Shown in pieces: positions 4,945-47,121 of a DNA stretch of 64,000 nucleotides. This DNA comes from Hymenobacter polaris (GTDB taxonomy: Bacteria > Bacteroidota > Bacteroidia > Cytophagales > Hymenobacteraceae): contig NZ_JABBGH010000002.1 of NCBI RefSeq assembly GCF_012927305.1, forward strand, positions 1,240,001 through 1,304,000, written 5' to 3'. Each line of letters begins with the position of its first letter. Positions within the stretch are counted from its first letter, which is position 1. The translations under genes and the position numbers were made by a program. The notes beneath the pieces are model-generated. The model ran no database searches. It saw only the letters and a program-made list of their open reading frames with translations, and had not been told where the DNA came from.

Positions 4945-5002
4945 TTAAAAAGCACGTCATGCCGAGCTAGCATCCGCTAGCTCGGCATGACGTGCTTTTT
5001 AA
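4945..5002. repeat. 27-bp perfect inverted repeat with REP-like ends
   Basis: The arms 4945-4971 and 4976-5002 are perfectly complementary around a 4-nt loop (ATCC). The outer part ends in A/T runs, so it can act as a bidirectional terminator, on the minus strand for the OsmC gene. The inner sequence CGTCATGCCGAGC differs by one base from the CGTCATGCTGAGC ends of the larger elements at 38321, 44480 and 45560. It may therefore be a minimal member of that family. Confidence 0.8.
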
Positions 5003-36773: not shown

Positions 36774-38300
36774 ATGCCGTTAACGCTTTATAATACCTTA
36801 ACCCGCCAGAAAGAGGCCTTCGAGCCGCTGCACCCGCCGCTGGTGGGGCTCTACTTGTGCGGGCCTACCGTCTACAACGATGCCCACTTGGGCAACGCCC
36901 GCGGCCCAATCGTGTTCGACGTGCTGACGCGCTACTTGCGCCACCTAGGCTACCAGGTGCGCTACGTGCGCAACATCACCGACGTGGGCCACCTCGAAAG
37001 CGACGCCGACACCGGCGAGGACAAGCTCGAAAAAGCGGCCCGCGCCAAGCAACTGGAGCCCATGCAGGTAGCCCAGCACTACACCGTGCGCTACCACCAG
37101 GCGCTGGCCGCCCTAGGGTGCCTGCCGCCCGATATTGAGCCCCAGGCCAGCGGCCACATCACCGAGCAAATCGGGCTGACCCAGGAAATCCTGAACAAGG
37201 GCCTGGCCTACGAATCGGCCGGCAGCATCTACTTCGACGTGAACCGCTACAACGCCGAGGGCGGGCAGTACGGCCGCCTCTCGGGCCGCGTGGTGGAGGA
37301 ACTGCTGGCCGGCGCCGGCCCTCGGGACCTGGCCGGGCAGGACGAAAAACGCTCGCCCGTAGACTTTGCGCTGTGGAAAAAGGCGAGCCCCGCGCACATC
37401 ATGCGCTGGCCCTCGCCCTGGGGTGAAGGCTTTCCCGGCTGGCACCTCGAATGCTCGGCCATGAGCCGCAAGTACTTGGGCGCCAGCTTCGATATTCACG
37501 GCGGGGGGCTCGACTTGATGTTTCCGCACCACGAGTGCGAGATTGCCCAGAACGAAGCCAGCGCCACGCCCAGCACCGGCGCCCGCTTCTGGCTGCACAA
37601 CAATATGCTGACCGTGAACGGCCAGAAGATGAGCAAGTCGCTGGGCAACTTCATCACCCTCAGCGAGTTCTTTCAGGGCAGTAGTGCCGCGCTCTCGCAG
37701 GCCTACTCGCCCATGACACTGCGCTTCTTCTTCTTGCAAGCCCAGTACCGCTCGCCCATCGACCTAAGCGACGACGCCCTGCAAGCCGCCCGCAAAGGCT
37801 ACCGCAAGCTCATGAACGGCCTGCGCCTGCTCGATAAGCTAGGGGAGGGGCTGGCCGGCCAGGATTTGACGCCCGAGCCGGCGCCCACCCAGCCGGGGCC
37901 GCCCTCGGCCAGCCAGCAGCTGCGCAACCTGGCCGCCAAGCCGCTGGAGTTTTTGAGCGACGACCTGAACACGCCCCGCGCCCTGGCCGCCTTATTCGAC
38001 TTGCTCAAGCGCCTCAACACGCTGGCCGCCAACCCCACCGCTCTGGCCGACATCAGCCCCGCCGCGCTGCACGAGGCCCTAACCACCTACCGCACTGTGG
38101 TAACGGACATCCTGGGTTTGCGCGACGAGCCCCGCGCCAGCGCCGAGGAGCTACTGGCCTTAGCCCTAGGGTTCTACCAAGAGGCCAAGGCTGGCAAAGC
38201 TTACGACAAGGTAGACCAGATTCGGGCCGCGCTCAAGGAGCAGGGTATCGTCATAAAAGACACGAAAACTGGCGTGGAATGGGCCTACAGCGAAGAGTAG
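36774..38300 (+). CDS. cysS: Cysteinyl-tRNA synthetase
   Basis: This 508-residue class I aminoacyl-tRNA synthetase has HLGN (His38) in place of HIGH and KMSKS near residue 285. The zinc-binding Cys and His residues of CysS are there: [17 protein letters not shown] and HHECE. It charges tRNA-Cys with cysteine. The C-terminal helical anticodon-binding domain is of the usual length. The start ATG at 36774 gives a standard length. Two CCCTAGGG sites lie within it, each encoding Leu-Gly (CTA GGG). A dyad-symmetric repeat follows 21 nt after the stop. Confidence 0.97.
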
Positions 38301-38320
38301 GCCGCAACTGTTACTTAATA

Positions 38321-38425
38321 GAACGTCATGCTGAGCTTGCCGAAGCATCTCTGCTGCGCAAGTAACCTTAAACGTTAGGATTACTTACGCGATAGAGATG
38401 CTTCGGCAAGCTCAGCATGACGTTC
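38321..38425. repeat. 105-bp dyad-symmetric intergenic element, copy A
   Basis: The perfect 32-bp arms 38321-38352 and 38394-38425 contain GTCATGCTGAGC and CGAAGCATCTCT. The 41-nt interior is itself imperfectly palindromic (GCAAGTAA with TTACTTACGC). It lies between CysS and the M28 peptidase gene. Related copies are at 44480-44590 and 45560-45715. Nothing suggests a protein. It may be a mobile REP-like or MITE-like element with no transposase in view. Confidence 0.85.
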
Positions 38426-38451
38426 TTGCAGATTGAAAAGAAATTAATTCT

Positions 38452-39477
38452 ATGCGTTTCCCCAAGTTGCTGCCGCTGCTGGCCCTAGGCGGCGCGTTCG
38501 TCCTCACCGCCTGCCCCGACAAGAAACCCGCCGAGCAGACCAGCGCGCCCGCCGAGGAAAAGCTGCGTAAGGCGCCGGCCTTCAACGCCGACTCGGCTTA
38601 TGCCTACACGGCCAAGCAGGTAGCATTCGGCCCTAGGGTGCCCAACAGCAAAGCGCACGTAGCTTGCGGCAACTACTTGGTAGCGAAGCTAAAAAGCTTT
38701 GGCCTGACGGTGTACGAGCAGCCGTTCAAGGCGATGACGTTTGACGGCACCAACATCAGTGCCCGCAACATTGTGGCCCAGTACCAACCCACGGCGGCGC
38801 GGCGCGTAGCCTTGTTCGCGCACTGGGATACCCGCCCTTTCGCCGATGGCGAAAAGGATAAAGCCAAGCGCAAGCTGCCCATGGACGGGGCCAGCGACGG
38901 AGCCAGCGCCGTGGCCGTGGCGATGGAAATAGTACGCACCTTGAGCCAGCAGCCCGAAAAAATGGCGCCCAACGTGGGCGTAGACGTTATCCTGGTTGAT
39001 GCCGAGGACTGGGGCTTCGATGCCGACCGCATCGATGGCCAAAAGAACCTGCTGGCTGGTAGCGGCGACGGCTGGTGCCTAGGCTCGCAGTACTGGGCCA
39101 AGAACATGGTGCCGCCCAACTACAAAGCGGAATACGGCGTGCTGCTCGACATGGTAGGGGCCAAGGATGGGCATTTCACCCGCGAGGGCATATCGCTGGA
39201 AAAGGCCCGCAACGTGGTAGATAAGATTTGGAATACCGCAGCTAAGATTGGTTATTCCGACTATTTCCTCTTCCGAGACACCGGCGCCATCACCGATGAC
39301 CACGTGTACATCAACCAAGCGGGCATCCCGACCGTGGACATCTACGACCACCCAGCCTTTGGGGAAGAGTATTTTAAGCCTTACCACCACACCACGGCCG
39401 ATAATATGAGCATCATCGACCGCAAAACGATGAAAGCGGTGGGCCAAACACTGGTACAGGTTATTTACCAGGAGTAG
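38452..39477 (+). CDS. M28-family zinc peptidase lipoprotein
   Basis: This 341-residue protein has a lipoprotein signal ending in FVLTAC (Cys20). The M28 fold shows metal-ligand candidates in AHWDTRPF, GASDGASAV, VDAEDWGFD, DDHVYINQAGIPTVDIYD and HTTADN. That combination, with a Trp-rich active-site loop, resembles glutaminyl-peptide cyclotransferase-like M28 members, so the reaction could be peptide cyclisation rather than cleavage. The location would be the outer or inner membrane facing the periplasm. The ATG at 38452 follows the repeat element. It converges on the DinB-like gene. Confidence 0.9.
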   Translation: MRFPKLLPLLALGGAFVLTACPDKKPAEQTSAPAEEKLRKAPAFNADSAYAYTAKQVAFGPRVPNSKAHVACGNYLVAKLKSFGLTVYEQPFKAMTFDGTNISARNIVAQYQPTAARRVALFAHWDTRPFADGEKDKAKRKLPMDGASDGASAVAVAMEIVRTLSQQPEKMAPNVGVDVILVDAEDWGFDADRIDGQKNLLAGSGDGWCLGSQYWAKNMVPPNYKAEYGVLLDMVGAKDGHFTREGISLEKARNVVDKIWNTAAKIGYSDYFLFRDTGAITDDHVYINQAGIPTVDIYDHPAFGEEYFKPYHHTTADNMSIIDRKTMKAVGQTLVQVIYQE

Positions 39478-39493
39478 GCCCTAGGGCTAGTAG

Positions 39494-40078
39494 CTACCGA
39501 TTGGCCGTGGCTTGCACTATCTGCTCGGCCTGCTTGACGTAGCGCTGGGCGTGGGCTACCAGGGCCTCCAGCACGTCGGTGAGGCGCAGGCGCAGCCAGG
39601 GGTAAAGGGGGTTGGGCACGCGCACGGCCCCGGCATCGACCTGGCGGGCCAGCAGCAGCAGGCGTAGCAGCTCGTCGAGCTGGCGATTGAAGGCCTCGAC
39701 CACGGTGCCGGTGAGGCGGGTGCCGGTGGGAGCATACTGCTTAGGCAAGCGCAAGAGGCTGTCGCCTAAGCCATTGCGCTGGCTAGCGCTGCGCGTGACG
39801 TAGCGCCCCAGCCAGCCGCTGCGCACCCGCTGGCCGGCCGCTGAACCCTTGGTGTGGGCCAGGCGCAAGCGGGCCTTTAGGGTGGGCAAAAAGTAGCCGC
39901 CTACCAGGTTGAGGTGCTCTAGGCACTGAGCAGCGCTCCAGTTATCGTAGCCCGGCCGGCGGTTGAGCTGCTCGGACGTGAGGGGCCGTAGGTGGCGGTA
40001 CGCTAGTACGCGCAGGGCCAGTACCTGATTGGTAAGTTGGTCGAAAAACTCGGTAGTATCGCGCGCGGAAGCACTCAT
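39494..40078 (-). CDS. DinB-like four-helix protein
   Basis: This 194-residue protein has the DinB/YfiT pattern. WSAAQCLEHLNLVGGYFLP supplies the first metal His and helix, and a second His is in LVAHAQRYVKQAEQI. The fold is a four-helix bundle. Family members include bacillithiol transferases and maleylpyruvate isomerase-like proteins, but most have no known role. Nothing in the surroundings points to a particular substrate. The gene's ATG is at 40078, with no strong promoter match visible. Confidence 0.85.
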   Translation of the reverse strand: MSASARDTTEFFDQLTNQVLALRVLAYRHLRPLTSEQLNRRPGYDNWSAAQCLEHLNLVGGYFLPTLKARLRLAHTKGSAAGQRVRSGWLGRYVTRSASQRNGLGDSLLRLPKQYAPTGTRLTGTVVEAFNRQLDELLRLLLLARQVDAGAVRVPNPLYPWLRLRLTDVLEALVAHAQRYVKQAEQIVQATANR

Positions 40079-40192
40079 GCGGGGTAAAAATAGCTAACGC
40101 GGAGGGGTTTGGGTTGTAATATTACGGCAGAGGTTGGTATGTCGGCGCCGGGCAATTGCTTAGCTGGCTAACTCCTAGTATAGTCAAGCCAG

Positions 40193-41188
40193 ATGGCAAA
40201 ATTGTTTTATACGCCCCTAGGCTGGCTCGCCTTAACCGGGCTGCTGCTGCCGCTAGCCGGCCCAGCCGCCGCGCAGGCCGTGCCCAATCCCGTCGAGAAG
40301 CTGGAGAGCCTGGTCACCTTCGGGCCGCAGGCGCCCACCGCCTGGGGCGACGACGACCACTCGCAAACGTTCTTCTTTCTGGTGCCCGCCACCCGGCGCG
40401 AGCCGTTCTACATCCGCGTGTTCGACCCCGACTGCGGCGGCACGCTCGACGCCAAAATCGGCGAGTTCAATACCCGCACCGAGTTCAGCCTGTATGGCGG
40501 GCCGGGCACCCACTCGGCCCCCGGCGCCACCAACCCGCGCCCCGCGCCCGGCACCGTGCCCAGTGGCCGCTTGCTGAAGCAGCAGGCCTTTGGCGTGGAC
40601 CCCGCCACTAACGGCAAATACTGGAACCTAGGCCCTCTAAACCCCCTAGAAGGCGAGTTGGTAGAGCAGTTTAAGGGCTACGTATACAAGGTAGTAGTGC
40701 GTGGGCTGAGCGGCAACGACGGCAACCTGTACCGCTTTTTCCTCAGCAGCAGCCCGAGCAGCGACGTGCCAGTGCCGGGCGGCAACGCCTTCACCTACAA
40801 ATACTGCTTCCGCATTCCGGCGGGGCCGCCCTCGGGCCGACCAGTTACGGTGCACCTCTACCCGTTTGCCGACGAAAACGTGGTCAGCATCAAGCAAAGC
40901 AACTTCGACCTCGACAACACGGCTAAGCTTACCGTATTCAGCGTAGCCAAGAACGGCCACGACGCGGCCGTGAGCGGCGATGGCCAGTGGGCCAGCAGCG
41001 TGCTGCCCATCACGCCCCAGGAGCACGGCCTCTCGCTCGACCTGCGCCTGACTAGCACCTCCAAAATTTTCAACGACGCCACCTTCTACGTTACCGACCA
41101 GTACGATAAAGCCTTGCCGTTCTTCGCCGTGCCCCTAGGGGGCCCGCCGCGCTATAAGTACGACATTGACATGCGCATTCATAGATAA
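40193..41188 (+). CDS. Secreted protein of unknown function
   Basis: This 331-residue protein has a signal peptide (core LALTGLLLPLAGPAAAQ) and a mature region rich in Pro, Gly and Asp. The interior is mainly predicted beta strand, suggesting two beta-sandwich-like domains at roughly residues 35-185 and 200-325. DPDCGGTLDAKIGEFNT and DQYDKALPFFAVPLGG are the best landmarks. I recognise no enzyme motif or sorting domain. A 48-bp inverted repeat begins 4 nt after the stop codon. Confidence 0.6.
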   Translation: MAKLFYTPLGWLALTGLLLPLAGPAAAQAVPNPVEKLESLVTFGPQAPTAWGDDDHSQTFFFLVPATRREPFYIRVFDPDCGGTLDAKIGEFNTRTEFSLYGGPGTHSAPGATNPRPAPGTVPSGRLLKQQAFGVDPATNGKYWNLGPLNPLEGELVEQFKGYVYKVVVRGLSGNDGNLYRFFLSSSPSSDVPVPGGNAFTYKYCFRIPAGPPSGRPVTVHLYPFADENVVSIKQSNFDLDNTAKLTVFSVAKNGHDAAVSGDGQWASSVLPITPQEHGLSLDLRLTSTSKIFNDATFYVTDQYDKALPFFAVPLGGPPRYKYDIDMRIHR

Positions 41189-41191
41189 TGG

Positions 41192-41302
41192 TTAATGTAA
41201 AAAATATAGAGAGATGTGAAGAATGTGAAAATTTCGGAAAGTGCTAATAGTGCCTTCCGAAATTTTCACATTCTTCACATCTCCCTATATTTTTTACATT
41301 AA
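41192..41302. repeat. 48-bp AT-rich inverted repeat between convergent genes
   Basis: The arms 41192-41239 and 41255-41302 pair with a single A-C mismatch (41210/41284) around a 15-nt loop. The outer ends are A/T-rich, so the structure can terminate both converging genes. The sequence is unrelated to the GTCATGCTGAGC family. The length is far beyond what an intrinsic terminator needs. Confidence 0.85.
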
Positions 41303-41306
41303 AAGG

Positions 41307-42560
41307 CTACTTATCCCGGCCGTCGTTGCGGCGAGGGGCGGGGCCGTAGTCGCCGTCGTTGGGCTGGTCGCCATCGGCGGGGCGGTTGTCCTGGCGGGCT
41401 TCCTGGCCGTAGTTCTGGGCCTTGTCTTGCTTGGTGAAGTCGTCGTAGGCGGGCGTTTGGGCGCCGGGGTTCTGGTCGTCATACGAGCCGCCTTTCGAGC
41501 CGTAGCCTTCGCTGGTATTGCCTTCCTTTGAGCCGCCGGGCCCAAAGCCGTTGCGCGAGTCGCCGGTGTCGGGGTTGCCGGCTTTGGCTTGCTCGCTGCG
41601 CTCAAACCCGTAGCCGTAACCTTCGCCCTGCGGCGCGCTGGGCGCATCGACGGGCGCGGGCGTGCCCTGGGGTGCGGTTTTGGCTTCCTGCTGCTGGCCA
41701 TCGTAGCCCCCGCGGGCCGAAGCGGGGTTACTGCCTATCCCGTGTCCATCGGGGGCCAAGGGCAGGTGATTGCTGGGGGTGTTGGCGGGCAGGCCCACGC
41801 CCGCCGTGTGGCCATAATCGTCGGCGTAGGCAGGGCCCACAGTGGGCGCACCGTTATCGTTCTGAAAAGCGGCGGCGGGGCCACCCTCGCTCACCAGGTT
41901 ACGTGTATCCTGCTGGCGGTAAGTGGCGTTAGGATTCGGGTCGAGCGGGCCGCCCTGGGTGGGCGTGGGCGTATCGCGCACGGCGTGGCCCTGCTCGGCA
42001 GGGCTGGTGTCCTGGCCGTCGTAGTCGCGGTAGGCATTGTGCTGGGGGCCAGGTCGGCTGGCGCCGTCGCCGTAGTATTTTTCTTCGGTAGCTTCAGCCG
42101 CGGGGCGCTCGGCCGCCGTGTCAAACTCGCGGTATTGGTTGCCGTAGCCGCCGTGGGTGGCCCCTAGGTGCCCTTGCTCGCCAAAAGCCCCCCGGTTCGG
42201 GGTCGATTCCTGGTTGGCCACGCGGTTGGGGTCGTTGAAGGTAGGCTGCACGTCGTTGCCAAAGTTGCCGCCGTACACGTCGGGCTGGCCCGAGGCGCTC
42301 GGCGGCGCGGGAGCCACCGGCGTGCCCTCAGCGTAGTTGGGCTGCGCGCCGCCGGGCACGGCGGCGCTGGGGTCAGTGGTTAGCTCCTGGCTGGTGGTGG
42401 CCGCGTCGCCCTCGGGCTGCGCCTGGGCATCGGGCGACTGCGTGTTGCTATTAGTCAGCGTGTTCTGCACGTCGGCACCCATTTTGGTATTGGCCACCGA
42501 CGGGCTGCTGTAGTTGCCGGCAATGGAGTTGGTGCCGGGGTATTCGGGGCTATCGGACAT
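41307..42560 (-). CDS. Wholly disordered hydrophilic protein
   Basis: This 417-residue protein has no Cys, no Trp, no signal peptide and no hydrophobic segment. It is made of Gly, Gln, Asn, Asp, Pro, Ser, Thr and Ala, with scattered Tyr (YGGNFGN, YDGQQQ, GYGYGF). It has no repeat of fixed length. It resembles hydrophilins and other intrinsically disordered stress proteins, or a low-complexity phase-separating protein, but has no family signature I know. I start at the ATG 42560. Codon choice looks normal for the genome, which speaks for a real gene. The function proposed is inference only. Confidence 0.6.
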   Translation of the reverse strand: MSDSPEYPGTNSIAGNYSSPSVANTKMGADVQNTLTNSNTQSPDAQAQPEGDAATTSQELTTDPSAAVPGGAQPNYAEGTPVAPAPPSASGQPDVYGGNFGNDVQPTFNDPNRVANQESTPNRGAFGEQGHLGATHGGYGNQYREFDTAAERPAAEATEEKYYGDGASRPGPQHNAYRDYDGQDTSPAEQGHAVRDTPTPTQGGPLDPNPNATYRQQDTRNLVSEGGPAAAFQNDNGAPTVGPAYADDYGHTAGVGLPANTPSNHLPLAPDGHGIGSNPASARGGYDGQQQEAKTAPQGTPAPVDAPSAPQGEGYGYGFERSEQAKAGNPDTGDSRNGFGPGGSKEGNTSEGYGSKGGSYDDQNPGAQTPAYDDFTKQDKAQNYGQEARQDNRPADGDQPNDGDYGPAPRRNDGRDK

Positions 42561-42811
42561 GGCGGAGCGGAACTGGGTGAAGGTGAGCAAAGGGCCGAGT
42601 GAAACCCTAGGGGCTATACGCCCCGGCGTTGATGGGGGTTGGCGGGCAACCGCGCTGAGCGGCGCGCTTGCACCCTAGGGCCGCGCGGGGGCAGCTAGCA
42701 AATTCTTCAGGAAAAAATAAGGTGCGACTGGCGGCCCATCAGCTTTCTTTGGAGTCCTTGCGATTCCTGCCGTTCACTAACCCGCATTTCTACCGCCTCA
42801 CCACTACTTCC

Positions 42812-44455
42812 ATGCAACGACGCTCCTTTTTGCAGCACGGCAGCCAGGCCGCGCTAGCTGCCACCTTGTTGCCACTCGCCGCGGCGGCAACCCCAGTGGC
42901 GCCCGAAACTACCAGCCCCGCCACGGGCGCCGCCGTGCCCGCGCCGCCTGTGCCCTTCGCCCTGAGCGAGGTGCCGCTGAGCGAACTGCAAGCCCGGCTG
43001 CAAAGCGGGCGCACCACCAGCCGCGCCCTCTGCCAGCAGTACCTGGCCCAGATTGCGGCCATCGACCACGCTGGCCCCGGCCTGCGCGCGGTGCTCGAAA
43101 CCAATCCCGATGCCCTAGCCCTGGCCGACGCGCTGGACAAAGAGCGCAAGGCCGGCAAGGTGCGCGGCCCACTGCACGGCATCCCTATCTTGCTGAAGGA
43201 CAACATCGACACCGGCGACAAGATGCAAACCACCGCCGGCGCCCTGGCCCTGGTGCCCCACCGCGCCGCCAAAGATGCCTGGGTGACGCAGCGCCTGCGG
43301 GCGGCCGGCGCCATCATCCTGGGTAAAACCAACCTCAGCGAGTGGGCCAACTTCCGCTCGAGCCACTCGGTGAGCGGCTGGAGCAGCCGCGGCGGCCAAA
43401 CCCACAACCCCTACGTGCTGAGCCGCACGCCCAGCGGCAGCAGCGCCGGCTCGGGCGCGGCGGCCTCGGCCAGCCTCTGCGCCGCCGCTGTGGGCACCGA
43501 AACCAACGGCAGCATCGTGTCGCCCAGCTCCAACAACGGCCTGGTAGGCCTCAAGCCCACGGTGGGGTTGGTGAGCCGCACGGGCATCATCCCCATCTCA
43601 GCTACCCAGGACACGGCCGGCCCCATGGCCCGCACCGTGCGCGACGCTGCCCTGCTGCTGGGCGGCATGGTGGGGCCCGACCCGGCCGACGCCGCCACCC
43701 TAGCCCCCGGCGCCCCCAAAACGCCCCAGGACTACACCCGCCTGCTGCGCCCCGACGCCCTGAAGGGCCAGAAGCTGGGCGTGGAGAAAAGCCACCTGGC
43801 CAGCCAGACGCCTGGCGGCGAACTGCTACGCCGCGCCGTGGAGGTGCTGAAAGCCCAGGGCGCCACCATCACGGAGGTTGACGTGCGCACCGCCACCCAG
43901 CCCATCGGCGAGGCCGAGTTCGACGTGCTGCTCTACGAGTTTAAGGACAGCGTGAATAAATACCTGGCCGGCACCAACGCCCCCGTCAAGAACCTGGCCG
44001 AGGTCATCGCCTTTAATAAGGCCCACGCCGCCCAGGCTATGCCCTACTTCCAGCAGGAAACCCTGGAGCAAGCCGAAAAAACCGACGGCCTGGGCAGCGA
44101 GAAATATAAAGCCGCCCTGCGCAAGGTACTGGACACTAGCCGCCAGGCGCTGGACGCGGCCTTGCAAACCGATGGGGGCCTAGGGGCCATCGTGGCCATT
44201 ACCACCGGCCCGGCCGCCTGCATCGACCTCGTGAATGGCGAGTACAACACCGGCCCCGGCTACTCGGGCGCGGCGGCCATGGCCGGCTATCCGCACCTCA
44301 CGCTGCCCATGGGCTACGTGCACGGCCTGCCCATCGGCCTGTCCTTCGTGGGCGCGCCCTACCGCGAGGCCGAGCTGCTGGCCCTGGGCTACGCCTACGA
44401 GCAAGCCACCAAGCACCGCCAAGCCCCGACCTTCGCCGCCGCCGTAGGATATTGA
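42812..44455 (+). CDS. Amidase-signature family protein with Tat-like signal
   Basis: This 547-residue protein begins [20 protein letters not shown], a twin-arginine-like export signal. The amidase signature follows, with the catalytic Lys in LKDNIDT (about residue 129), the cis-Ser in [10 protein letters not shown] and the nucleophile Ser in TETNGSIV (about 233). It would hydrolyse an amide in the periplasm. A GatA role is unlikely because of the export signal. The chosen ATG is the only one that gives this signal; the frame continues 48 codons upstream. A dyad-symmetric element follows 24 nt after the stop. Confidence 0.9.
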
Positions 44456-44479
44456 GTTAACGCAGCGTAGAAAAGTGGT

Positions 44480-44590
44480 AAACGAACGTCATGCTGAGCC
44501 TGCGAAGCATCTCTCCCGCGTAAGTAAACCCAACGTTTGGAGTTAGTTACGCGGGAGAGATGCTTCGCAGACTCAGCATGACGTTCGTTT
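44480..44590. repeat. 111-bp dyad-symmetric intergenic element, copy B
   Basis: The 44-bp arms 44480-44523 and 44547-44590 have one mismatch. They contain the family core GTCATGCTGAG and CGAAGCATCTCTC, then CGCGTAA. The outer 5' AAACGAA is paired in this copy but absent from copy A. The element sits between the amidase and methyltransferase genes. Confidence 0.85.
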
Positions 44591-44636
44591 TCTGATAACT
44601 GATAATTGTTGACTGATAATTGCCAACTGACCTGCC

Positions 44637-45563
44637 GTGCATTACCTACTGAAAGCCGCCGTGCAAAACGCCGTGGCGTGGCTGCCCCGGCCGCTGGGGC
44701 AGCCGCTCTACTACCAGCTGCAACGCCGCTTTGGGGCCCTGCGCCAGGTCGATTACTGGCGGCACCTGGAGAAAGCGGCCAAAATTGCCGGCATCCTGCG
44801 CCAGCAAAACCTACCCCTGGAGCGTTGCTTTCTGGAGGTGGGCACGGGCTGGGTGCTGGGCACGCCCCTCGGGCTGTGGCTAGCTGGCGCCGCCGAAGTA
44901 ATCACCGTTGATTTGCACTCCTACTTAAAGGAAGAGTTAGTGCTGGGGCTGCTAACCTACGTGGGCGCGCACGCCGCCGAGCTACCGGCGCTCTTCCCGT
45001 GGGTGCCTAGGGCCGAACTGGCGCGCAAGGCGCAGGTGCTGGCCGGCTGCCACTCGCTGGCCGAACTGTGGGCGGCCGTGCCCATCCGCTACGCCGCCCC
45101 CGCCGATGCTACTCGCCTCGAGCTGCCCGCTGCCAGCGTCGACTATCATTATTCCACCAACGTGCTCGAGCACGTGCCGGCCGCCACCCTAGCCGGCCTA
45201 CTGGCCGAGGCCCGCCGCGTGCTGCGCCCCGGCGGTTACCTGGTGCACCTAGTCGATTTGAGCGACCATTTTGGCCACGATGACCCTAGGCGCACGGCGG
45301 TGCACTTTCTGCGCCACGGCCCGCTGGCGTGGCGCCTGCTGGCCGGCAACCGCTTCATGTACCAAAACCGCCTGCGCCTGCCCCAGTACCGGGCGCTGTT
45401 TGCCGCCGCCGGCCTGCCCATCGCCTGGGAGCGTGCCGTCACCGATGCGCCCAGCCTGGCGCTGCTGCAAGCCCCTAGGCCGCCGGTGCATCCGCAGTTC
45501 CGGCGCTTTTCGGCCGAGGAGCTGGCATCGGTGTATTGGGAAGTGCTGGCGGTGAATCCCTAG
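44637..45563 (+). CDS. Class I SAM-dependent methyltransferase
   Basis: This 308-residue protein has motif I FLEVGTGWVLGTP, acidic motif II VITVDLH and motif IV-like STNVLEHV, the canonical order for Rossmann-fold methyltransferases of the Methyltransf_11/25 type. LRPGGYLVHLVDLSDHFGHD follows as motif V. The start codon is GTG at 44637; no ATG precedes it in frame nearby. The TAG stop codon lies within the left arm of the inverted repeat at 45560-45715. The substrate is unknown; a lipid or natural-product substrate is possible. Confidence 0.8.
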   Translation: MHYLLKAAVQNAVAWLPRPLGQPLYYQLQRRFGALRQVDYWRHLEKAAKIAGILRQQNLPLERCFLEVGTGWVLGTPLGLWLAGAAEVITVDLHSYLKEELVLGLLTYVGAHAAELPALFPWVPRAELARKAQVLAGCHSLAELWAAVPIRYAAPADATRLELPAASVDYHYSTNVLEHVPAATLAGLLAEARRVLRPGGYLVHLVDLSDHFGHDDPRRTAVHFLRHGPLAWRLLAGNRFMYQNRLRLPQYRALFAAAGLPIAWERAVTDAPSLALLQAPRPPVHPQFRRFSAEELASVYWEVLAVNP

Positions 45564-45715
45564 GGTAGTATCTGCTTAAAACAGGCGGTCATGCTGAGCG
45601 CAGCCGAAGCATCTCTACCGCGTCACTAACTCCTAACGAAAGGAATTACTTACGCGGTAGAGATGCTTCGGCTGCGCTCAGCATGACCGCCTGTTTTAAG
45701 CAGATACTACCCTAG
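45560..45715. repeat. 156-bp inverted repeat with 64-bp perfect arms, copy C
   Basis: The arms 45560-45623 and 45652-45715 are perfectly complementary, with a 28-nt centre. The family core (GTCATGCTGAGC, CGAAGCATCTCT) lies inside, while the outer 29 bp are unique to this copy. The TAG stop codons of the converging methyltransferase (45561-45563) and GlcD-like (45712-45714) genes are both inside the arms, at mirrored positions. It must act as a strong hairpin for both mRNAs. Confidence 0.9.
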
Positions 45716-47121
45716 AAAATCTTGCCGGGGTTTAGGATGCCGTGCGGGTCGAATACCTGCTTGATGCCGCGCATCAGGTTCAGATTAGCCTCTTTGAGGG
45801 CAATGTGCAGGTAGGGCTTCTGCACCAGCCCAATGCCGTGCTCGCCCGAAATGGTACCCCCTAGGCGCACGCAGAGCGCAAAAATCTCCGATATGGGCGC
45901 GCGCAGGCCGGTCGTCCACTGCTCCTCGCTCAGGTCGCCGCGGATGATGTTGACGTGCAGGTTACCGTCGCCCGCGTGGCCGTAGCACACGCTCTTGAAG
46001 CCGTAGCGGGCGCCGATTTCCTTCACGCCCTTCAGCAGCGTAGGCAGCTCGGCGCGGGGCACCACGGTGTCTTCCTCCTTATACACCGAGTTGTAGCGCA
46101 CCGAGTTACCAATGTTGCGCCGAATACGCCACAGGTCGTCCTTTTGGGCGGCGGTGTCGGCCAGCAGGATTTCGCCCACGTCGTAGGTTTCCAGCACTTC
46201 GTACACCTTCTCGGCTTCCTTATAGAGCTGGTCGAGGTCCTGGCCGTCCAGCTCAATGAGCAGGTGGGCGGTGATGTCGTCGGGCAGCGTGAGGGGAATT
46301 TTGAGGTAGTCCGACGACCAGGCGATGGCCTCGCGCTCCATAAACTCCATGCCCGAGGGGATGATGCCCGCCCGAAATACCGCCGATACTGCCGCCGCCG
46401 CCTGCGCCTCCTGTCGGAAGGGTACCAGCATCAAGATATTGTGCTGGGGGTAGGGGAGGAGCCGGAATACGGCCTTGGTAATGATGCCCAGGGTGCCTTC
46501 CGAGCCCACCATGAGTTGGGTCAGGTTGTAGCCGGTGGCGTACTTGAGGGTATTGGCGCCGGTCCAGATAACGTCGCCGGTGGGTAGCACTACCTCCAGG
46601 TTCAGCACGTAGTCGCGGGTGGTGCCGTACTTCACGGCCTTGGGCCCGCCGCTGCTCTGGCTCAGGTTGCCCCCCAGGAAGCACGAGCCCTTGCTGGCCG
46701 GGTCGGGCGGGTAAAACAGCCCCACTTCCTGCACCGCGTTCTGGAACGCCTCCGTCACCACGCCCGGCTCCACGGTGGCTTGCAGGCTCTGCTCGTCGAT
46801 GTTCAAAATCTTGTTGAAGCGCTCCATGCTCAGCAGCACGCCCTGGTGCACGGGCAGCGCCGCGCCGCTCAGGCCGGTGCCGGCGCCGCGGGCCGTTATG
46901 GGAATATGGTGCTCGTGGCAGAGGCGCATGATGGCGCTCACTTCCTCCACCGTGCCGGGGCGCAGCACCACGTCGGGCGGAAACAGGAAGTCTTCGGTAT
47001 GGTCGCGCCCGTAGGCTTCGTACACCAGCGCTTCGGTGCGGGCGGCCGTCAGCACGTGGGCCGGGCCTACAATGCCCTCAAAGGCCACCACCAGCTCGGC
47101 GGTAAGGGGAGTGAAAGTCAT
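45712..47121 (-). CDS. GlcD-like FAD-linked oxidase
   Basis: This 469-residue protein belongs to the FAD-binding PCMH/VAO group of D-2-hydroxyacid dehydrogenases. The FAD domain shows RGAGTGLSGAALPVH and GSCFLGGNLSQSSGGPKAVKYG; the cap domain ends with CYGHAGDGNLHVNI and SGEHGIG, both metal- or substrate-binding loops in glycolate and lactate oxidases. It lacks GlcE and GlcF partner genes nearby, so it may act alone on D-lactate, glycolate or 2-hydroxyglutarate. Its TAG stop is inside the 64-bp inverted repeat. Confidence 0.9.
   Translation of the reverse strand: MTFTPLTAELVVAFEGIVGPAHVLTAARTEALVYEAYGRDHTEDFLFPPDVVLRPGTVEEVSAIMRLCHEHHIPITARGAGTGLSGAALPVHQGVLLSMERFNKILNIDEQSLQATVEPGVVTEAFQNAVQEVGLFYPPDPASKGSCFLGGNLSQSSGGPKAVKYGTTRDYVLNLEVVLPTGDVIWTGANTLKYATGYNLTQLMVGSEGTLGIITKAVFRLLPYPQHNILMLVPFRQEAQAAAAVSAVFRAGIIPSGMEFMEREAIAWSSDYLKIPLTLPDDITAHLLIELDGQDLDQLYKEAEKVYEVLETYDVGEILLADTAAQKDDLWRIRRNIGNSVRYNSVYKEEDTVVPRAELPTLLKGVKEIGARYGFKSVCYGHAGDGNLHVNIIRGDLSEEQWTTGLRAPISEIFALCVRLGGTISGEHGIGLVQKPYLHIALKEANLNLMRGIKQVFDPHGILNPGKIF

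What the first reader, a model, noticed from the sequence alone, without database searches (positions are those of the whole stretch)
38321..45715. Family of dyad-symmetric elements with copy-specific self-complementary outer arms
Three elements (38321, 44480, 45560) share GTCATGCTGAGC and GAAGCATCTC cores and a palindromic centre. Beyond the shared core, the outer arms differ between copies (3, 7 and 29 extra bp) yet pair perfectly within each copy. A simple insertion would not copy the flanking host sequence in inverted form on the other side. Either the element extends its palindrome into flanking DNA (template switching, hairpin-primed repair) or each copy was selected as a hairpin. No transposase or RAYT gene is near.
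Basis: partly seen in the sequence, partly recalled or inferred. Interest (0 to 1): 0.68.

Follow-up and report, generated by a model that had tools for sequence, protein, structure and literature searches.

The report
Gene-end hairpins growing into flanks
This bacterium, probably a Hymenobacter, carries some 300 or more copies of a short hairpin-forming repeat at the ends of its genes, and in some copies the DNA just outside the repeat appears to have been copied, inverted, to the other side, so that the hairpin grows in place and can overwrite the last codons of a neighbouring gene.

Summary
The three elements are near-perfect hairpins of 107, 111 and 156 bp; beyond the shared core their arms pair perfectly for 5, 8 and 28 bp (reader: 3, 7, 29). 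They are head-to-head dimers of a CGTC-like REP unit, some 300 or more per genome, mostly 15-45 bp past stop codons with A/T tracts on both sides: bidirectional terminators by anatomy. The genome has no Y1 (RAYT-type) transposase match.

Long copy-specific arms are a minority feature: 8 of 69 copies pair for 15 bp or more (0.0 expected from mismatched flanks). They are not special to the element; unrelated hairpins here and in relatives do the same.

Comparison favours growth in place. One 27-bp-armed copy has orthologues without those arms in two relatives. In another, a gene ends with its partner's last codon and stop, where orthologues end differently. Sister species (94% identical) show two clear cases of one flank replaced by the inverted other flank, many double-sided arm changes and one inverted spacer. 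I read this as replication template switching at hairpins, a known mutation mechanism, filtered by selection for terminators. Termination and the molecular step are inferred; insertion into older hairpins is not excluded for single copies.

The parts
38320..38426 (.). Copy 1: head-to-head REP-like dimer between cysS and an M28 peptidase gene (same direction); cores 38325-38351 (+) and 38395-38421 (-); 5 bp of perfect pairing outside the core
44480..44590 (.). Copy 2: dimer downstream of the amidase gene and upstream of the methyltransferase gene; cores 44488-44513 (+) and a one-mismatch core at 44571-44582 (-); 8 bp of perfect pairing outside the core
45560..45715 (.). Copy 3: dimer between the convergent methyltransferase and FAD-linked oxidase genes; cores 45588-45615 (+) and 45660-45687 (-)
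45560..45587 (+). Left 28-nt copy-specific outer arm of copy 3; contains the methyltransferase stop codon TAG (45561-45563)
45688..45715 (-). Right 28-nt outer arm, perfect inverted copy of the left one; contains the oxidase stop codon (45712-45714 on the minus strand)
4945..5002 (.). Short related hairpin with variant core GTCATGCCGAGC; 11 bp of perfect pairing outside the GTC, including A/T tracts on both sides
41192..41302 (.). A/T-rich palindrome without the core, 55-nt arms 93% complementary, filling the gap between two convergent ORFs that end at 41188 and 41307: an example that long gene-end palindromes are not special to the REP-like family

Best explanation
Each element is a head-to-head dimer of a CGTC-like REP unit that forms a strong hairpin with A/T tracts on both sides. 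Sitting just past stop codons, it most likely works as a bidirectional intrinsic terminator (inferred from anatomy). When replication stalls at such a hairpin, the nascent strand folds back or switches to the other strand within the outer stem, copies one arm and its unique flank, and then returns to its own template (inferred; the quasipalindrome template-switch mechanism). The product is what the comparisons show: the opposite flank is replaced by the inverted copy, so the hairpin grows outward in place, sometimes up to or through a stop codon. Selection for a working hairpin and tolerable gene ends keeps some products, and later mutation erodes them. The process acts on strong gene-end hairpins in general, not only on this family.
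For: Perfect outward pairing of 15 bp or more in 8 of 69 dimers against 0.0 from mispaired flanks; inexact flank pairing in 12 of 69 against 0.7. C1:449542: same dimer between the same genes in two relatives without the 27-bp arms. C1:718556: both convergent genes end TAT-TAG inside the arms, while gene B orthologues end differently and matches of gene A reach its stop codon in 16 of 18 relatives. Sister pair G020/G005: right flank of one hairpin and left flank of another replaced by the inverted other flank in G005, the second polarised by outgroup G034. 24 arm pairs changed on both sides and still paired against 1.5 expected, three adjacent ones at one site. One spacer inverted of 30 tested. 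Position and A/T tracts.
Against: C1:274467 has perfect 25-bp outer arms although its two inner loops differ, so a copy tract through the whole arm is excluded there. Long-armed dimers are not more perfect inside than the rest: 5 of 8 against 32 of 61 without a core mismatch, p 0.72. Long arms are rare for this family elsewhere: 0 of 48 in six relatives, 2 of 102 in named loci. No orthologue was available for copy 3 with its partner gene, so its own history is not shown. The first G005 event has no outgroup, and decay of an older palindrome in G020 (two substitutions, one 4-nt loss) is not excluded. Single double-sided changes can also come from compensating selection. T tracts are not stronger on the downstream side in same-direction sites, p 0.32.
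Confidence: 0.68

Rival explanations
1. The dimer inserted into the loop of a pre-existing hairpin, such as a terminator, so the copy-specific outer arms are older than the element.
For: Published precedents: Halothiobacillus CGTC-1 and Anabaena GTAG-15 dimers lie within palindromes (PMC3733652, passages read). C1:274467 has perfect outer arms and unlike inner loops. Plain terminators embedded in longer palindromes exist in this genome.
Against: At C1:449542 the dimer is present without the arms in two relatives. The published targets share a consensus; here outer arms are unique, listed matches of other copies ending within a few nt of the core. Flank replacement on existing hairpins is seen between sister species.
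Confidence: 0.13
2. The inverted flank copies come from repair or recombination (hairpin-primed break repair, cruciform resolution, exchange between arms) rather than from polymerase template switching during replication.
For: Sequence products would be much the same; SbcD, which cuts hairpins in other bacteria (recalled), is encoded; one spacer inversion also fits exchange between arms.
Against: The tracts seen are short (tens of bp) with small length changes of +4 and +2 nt, which fits switching; nothing here separates the two directly.
Confidence: 0.13
3. Selection alone: each copy was kept as a hairpin and point mutations with compensating changes built the matching arms.
For: The sites look like terminators and stems covary, 165 of 175 units against 140.8 with shuffled partners.
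Against: Perfect runs of 17-28 bp in unique flank, three adjacent double-sided changes, and a stretch containing a partner gene's last codon and stop are not expected from stepwise change.
Confidence: 0.04
4. Assembly or polishing artefact that made the two arms alike.
For: Hairpins of this size are hard for short reads; raw reads were not available here.
Against: Long or flank-including palindromes are seen in several separately assembled genomes, and the arms differ between species as inherited sequence would.
Confidence: 0.02

Closest known systems
CGTC-tagged REP elements, head-to-head dimers (Di Nocera et al. 2013, PMC3733652; abstract and passages read)
   Same: Tag next to a short stem beginning AT, loop of about 5, dimers predominantly head to head, mostly intergenic near gene ends, in Bacteroidetes among other phyla, no associated transposase
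   Different: Tail CTC instead of the usual CCA, G in place of the first C of the tag in about a third, two mismatches in the stem; copy-specific rather than consensus outer palindromes
REPINs served by RAYT transposases (PMC3116915, PMC6006769; listing and passages only)
   Same: High-copy inverted pair of REPs with a short spacer
   Different: No Y1_Tnp gene in the genome
Quasipalindrome-associated template-switch mutations in E. coli (PMC7202029; abstract and passages read)
   Same: An imperfect inverted repeat becomes more perfect by copying one arm
   Different: There reporters and hotspots in a laboratory strain; here natural gene-end hairpins, extended into unique flank up to stop codons
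Template switching that creates and maintains RNA hairpins, and arm homogenisation in yeast genes (PMC8794818 abstract and passages; PMC8604942 passages)
   Same: Double-sided changes, new stems in one event, spacer inversion
   Different: Those studies treat RNA genes and yeast coding genes; here terminator-like palindromes between bacterial genes
Bidirectional intrinsic terminators between convergent genes (general knowledge; listing only)
   Same: Stable hairpin with A/T tracts on both sides, just past stop codons
   Different: Much longer stems, built from a dispersed repeat

Membership tests
CGTC-tagged REP superfamily | CGTC motif at one end (often changed to TGTC or CCTC in the published set) | tested here: inconclusive
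   Base before GTC is C in 92, G in 43, T in 3 of 138 ends
CGTC-tagged REP superfamily | Stem of 8-9 bp with A and T in the first two positions | tested here: inconclusive
   Stem starts AT by the search pattern; 5 outer pairs ATGCT/AGCAT or ATTCC/GGAAT covary, 165 of 175 units complementary against 140.8 with shuffled partners; two inner G-A mismatches interrupt the stem
CGTC-tagged REP superfamily | Loop of 4-5 | tested here: inconclusive
   Among the eight commonest loops of 122 own units, 85 have 5 nt, 3 have 4 nt and 20 have 6 nt
CGTC-tagged REP superfamily | Short unpaired tail, most fitting CCA | tested here: inconclusive
   A 3-nt tail is there but it is CTC in 115 of 122 own units; the paper says 'most', so CCA is not strictly defining
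CGTC-tagged REP superfamily | Head-to-head dimers predominant | tested here: met
   69 dimers against 3 single halves
CGTC-tagged REP superfamily | No associated transposase gene | tested here: met
   No Y1_Tnp match in the genome; no transposase domain in nine neighbouring ORFs
RAYT-served REPIN | RAYT (Y1_Tnp) gene in the genome | tested here: not met
   PF01797: 0 matches; control rings in 5 of 14 genomes
Bidirectional intrinsic terminator | Stable hairpin with T tract on both sides, close behind stop codons | tested here: met
   Folds (three copies); 4.2-5.0 T in 8 nt against 2.3 further out; 30 convergent, 38 same-direction, 1 divergent
Bidirectional intrinsic terminator | Ends transcription in both directions | not testable with these tools
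   No RNA data
Template-switch mutation | Derived state has arms made more alike by copying the other arm or flank | tested here: met
Template-switch mutation | Spacer inversion in some events (switch between strands) | tested here: inconclusive
   1 inverted, 20 direct, 9 neither, of 30 tested
Template-switch mutation | Happens during replication | not testable with these tools
   Needs an experiment

The most novel reading that the evidence does not exclude
In this lineage template switching at gene-end hairpins is so active that it is a main route by which terminators arise, grow from stop codon to stop codon and replace one another, and it rewrites protein C-termini and stop codons by copying one gene's end into its convergent neighbour.
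Probability: 0.33. Interest if true: 0.7.

Novelty: new variant of a known kind. Interest (0 to 1): 0.5.

Why it matters
It joins a repeat class that has no known mobiliser to a known mutation mechanism, in natural sister genomes. It offers a testable answer to how long perfect stems arise in one step, and suggests that convergent gene ends, stop codons included, can be overwritten by inverted copying. Because several hairpin sites differ even between 94%-identical species, the process could be measured directly in this genus.

Tried and rejected
Y1/RAYT mobiliser: searched, none found. Lack of SbcCD as the reason long palindromes survive: rejected, SbcD has a match over cut-off; ExoVII large subunit too. 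The ExoI C-terminal domain is absent, but of 14 control genomes only E. coli has it, so this says little. Terminator scan of 38200-45900: the scanner allows loops of 3-8 only and cannot see these stems; no conclusion. Stronger T tracts downstream at same-direction sites: not found, p 0.32. More perfect inner arms in long-armed copies: not found, p 0.72. Clean presence/absence of dimers between sister species: mostly replacement by another hairpin rather than an empty site; G034 has no hairpin at the copy-1 site, but its flanks do not align well enough to show what was inserted. The G051/G034 pair proved only 89% identical and was of little use. Equal stop offsets (4 of 65 convergent hairpins, 0.08 expected from mispaired sides) are not independent proof, since a perfect arm that covers one stop shows its copy on the other strand. 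Of six extension candidates I did not count three with messy alignments (9073, 17819, 383898); of the rest I rely on two (47535, 348793) and call one (85152) suggestive. Ends of genes at C1:34525 and C1:278512 could not be judged: no close orthologues among the sequences held.

Slips: searches printed minus-strand loci in the wrong orientation (corrected); one search printed empty strings for three genomes (repeated); notebook entry 7 gives 1.83 Mb for the six relatives' samples where the lengths add up to 1.63 Mb.
Full report
WHAT IS THERE. The window lies in contig C2 of a 5.59-Mb genome of 8 contigs. Its genus is Hymenobacter by inference: two genomes that the tool calls same genus, G034 and G040, have contigs of exactly the lengths (672,798 and 378,010 bp) of named Hymenobacter records. 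The three elements are confirmed. Each is two head-to-head copies of a unit of the form [C/G]GTC-ATGCT-GAG-loop-CGA-AGCAT-CTC around a spacer. The half-unit pattern gives 312 + 298 exact matches in the genome and 0 for the reversed control. In C1:1-800,000 plus the window, allowing mismatches, I found 69 dimers and 3 single halves.

WHERE IT SITS. With a simple codon-usage gene caller written here (not a standard annotator), 30 dimers lie between convergent genes, 38 between same-direction genes and 1 between divergent genes; of all gaps of 20 bp or more, 109, 362 and 128 are of these kinds. Of the 98 distances from a gene's 3' end to the core listed there for convergent and same-direction sites, 75 are 15-45 bp (counted by hand). 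The 8 nt beyond the 4-nt tag hold 4.2-5.0 T on average against 2.3 further out; in same-direction sites the two sides do not differ, p 0.32. With the folds this is the anatomy of a bidirectional terminator. Termination was not tested.

HOW OFTEN THE ARMS ARE LONG. Perfect pairing outward from GTCATGC is 15 bp or more in 8 of 69 dimers, 10 or more in 13 and 6 or more in 25. The null, which pairs left and right flanks of different dimers and so keeps shared tags and A tracts, gives 0.0, 0.57 and 5.1. With mismatches and gaps allowed, 12 of 69 exceed the 99% null score, 0.7 expected. Copy 3 of the window is the longest (28 bp); copies 1 and 2 (5 and 8 bp) are within or near the shared-tag range. 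In the listed matches (capped lists) other copies mostly end within a few nt of the core, so the outer arms are copy-specific. Elsewhere long arms are rarer in this family: 0 of 48 dimers with 12 bp or more in stretches of six relatives and 2 of 102, 0.03 expected, in 80 named loci (at least 107 stretches matched, 80 were given).

NOT ONLY THIS ELEMENT. The same sample holds 177 hairpins with 16 or more pairs, 8 of them inside called genes; 111 lack the core match used there, though some of these are family members whose palindrome was cut short or whose core varies. Plain terminators lie embedded in longer unique palindromes that begin at, in or 2 bp past a stop codon (C1:443718, C1:278512, C1:58863). 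In 5 of 65 convergent hairpins the arms include a stop codon on both sides, two of them REP-like dimers. Downstream of the oxidase gene, relatives carry quite different hairpins; two of them run, by eye, from stop to stop without the core (G051, G055).

EVIDENCE FOR GROWTH IN PLACE. (1) C1:449542, 27-bp arms: the same dimer between the same genes is found in G047 and G040 (flanks 90-93% identical), where it pairs for only 10 and 2 bp outside the core; the 4-nt tags also differ between the species. By eye the own left flank resembles the G040 left flank more than the right flanks resemble each other. (2) C1:718556, the 27-bp-armed dimer at 718583: both convergent genes end TAT-TAG inside the arms. 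Gene B ends ...LQLGY here, but ...LRLGEAPAG in G047 and ...LELRAPG in G040. Matches of gene A reach its stop codon in 16 of the 18 relatives searched, and in 12 they end in it or one base past it (positions only, letters not available). The simplest reading is that the end of gene B was overwritten by the inverted end of gene A. (3) Sister species G020 and G005 align at 93.9% over 357 kb. At a hairpin of another family (G005 47535) the adjoining left flank is the same in both, but the G005 right flank is the inverted copy of the left, 4 nt longer than in G020; the G005 arms also share a C-to-G change, derived by comparison with other copies. No outgroup was found. At a plain terminator (G005 348793) the right flank is shared and the G005 left flank is its inverted copy, 2 nt longer; outgroup G034 has a left flank more like that of G020, a short similarity. 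A third case, G005 85152, is suggestive. (4) In 59 well-aligned hairpins of this pair 24 arm pairs changed on both sides and stayed paired, against 1.5 expected under independence; 28 pairs changed on both sides in all, against 2-12 when the partner is slid by 2-4 bases; 82 changed on one side. The reverse comparison gives 22 against 1.0 at 50 sites. A looser set with poor alignments gives 65 paired and 36 unpaired double changes and 261 one-sided. Compensating selection can give single double changes; site 134227 shows three adjacent bases changed on both arms. (5) One of 30 testable spacers is inverted between the sisters, 20 are direct, 9 neither; spacer inversion is ascribed to switching between strands in PMC8604942 (passages read).

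MECHANISM. These facts match template switching at imperfect palindromes, in which an inverted repeat becomes more perfect (PMC7202029 and PMC8794818, abstracts and passages; PMC8604942, passages). A switch inside the outer 12-bp stem would extend the arms without touching the inner part, which would explain C1:274467, where outer arms are perfect but inner loops differ; insertion into an older hairpin would explain it as well. Shown: the sequence products, and in two or three cases their direction. Inferred: the polymerase step, termination, and selection as the filter. Hairpin-primed repair or recombination between arms could give the same products.

COMPARISON WITH KNOWN SYSTEMS. The unit is closest to CGTC-tagged REPs, which occur in Bacteroidetes among five phyla, form head-to-head dimers and are not associated with transposase genes (PMC3733652, passages read). 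Tag, stem and tail depart from the published description in part, so I call it CGTC-like and do not file it in one of the four families. It is not a RAYT-served REPIN: no Y1_Tnp match. In print: the core sequence stands in two papers of the library, both unrelated by title and abstract. Listings of four searches showed no report of the pattern: Hymenobacter with palindromic repeats (25 of 1,672 papers listed, 10 of 44), template switching with terminators (all 9) and with convergent genes and stop codons (all 8). This covers open-access PMC text only.

VERDICT. The long arms are single events of a general process on top of a known kind of repeat. What is new here is the scale, the reach to stop codons and the apparent rewriting of a gene end.

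Noticed in passing
whole window and C1:1-800000 (L050-L089): The palindrome CCTAGG is very common in this genome (1233 in 864 kb, 4.3 times the dinucleotide expectation; CCCTAGGG 545 times) and scarce in stretches of six same-genus genomes (3-15 per sample, 0.05-0.13 of expectation; CCCTAGGG 0 in 1.63 Mb). 738 of 1144 lie in called genes, 607 of 711 phased ones in one codon phase. It recalls HIP1 of cyanobacteria (recalled), as a lineage-specific highly iterated palindrome.
   Followed up: partly
window 44637-45563: The methyltransferase gene lies between copies 2 and 3 and has no match better than E 5e-5 in 60 same-genus genomes, where amidase and oxidase are often direct neighbours: perhaps a gene gained between two hairpin repeats.
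   Followed up: partly
G020 and G005 stretches (L172-L211): Even between species 94% identical, several gene gaps hold hairpins of entirely different families, so gene-end hairpins turn over faster than the genes beside them.
   Followed up: partly
C1:302391, C1:312837, C1:337469, C1:466228, C1:628592 and others: Other families of long gene-end palindromes (CCCCACCCCC-type and CGCAGATTTAACGGATT-type) with arms of 50-86 matched pairs, some also reaching stop codons.
   Followed up: no
window 41192-41302: A/T-rich palindrome that fills the whole gap between two convergent ORFs and has no REP core.
   Followed up: no
L234, L244, L264, L268, L293: The exact 27-nt unit also occurs in five loci from Kiritimatiellia and Verrucomicrobia metagenome bins, of 80 loci listed: wrong binning or transfer.
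   Followed up: no
window 44590-44630: Low-complexity TGATAATTG-like repeats directly after copy 2; similar heptamer repeats form hairpins in relatives.
   Followed up: no
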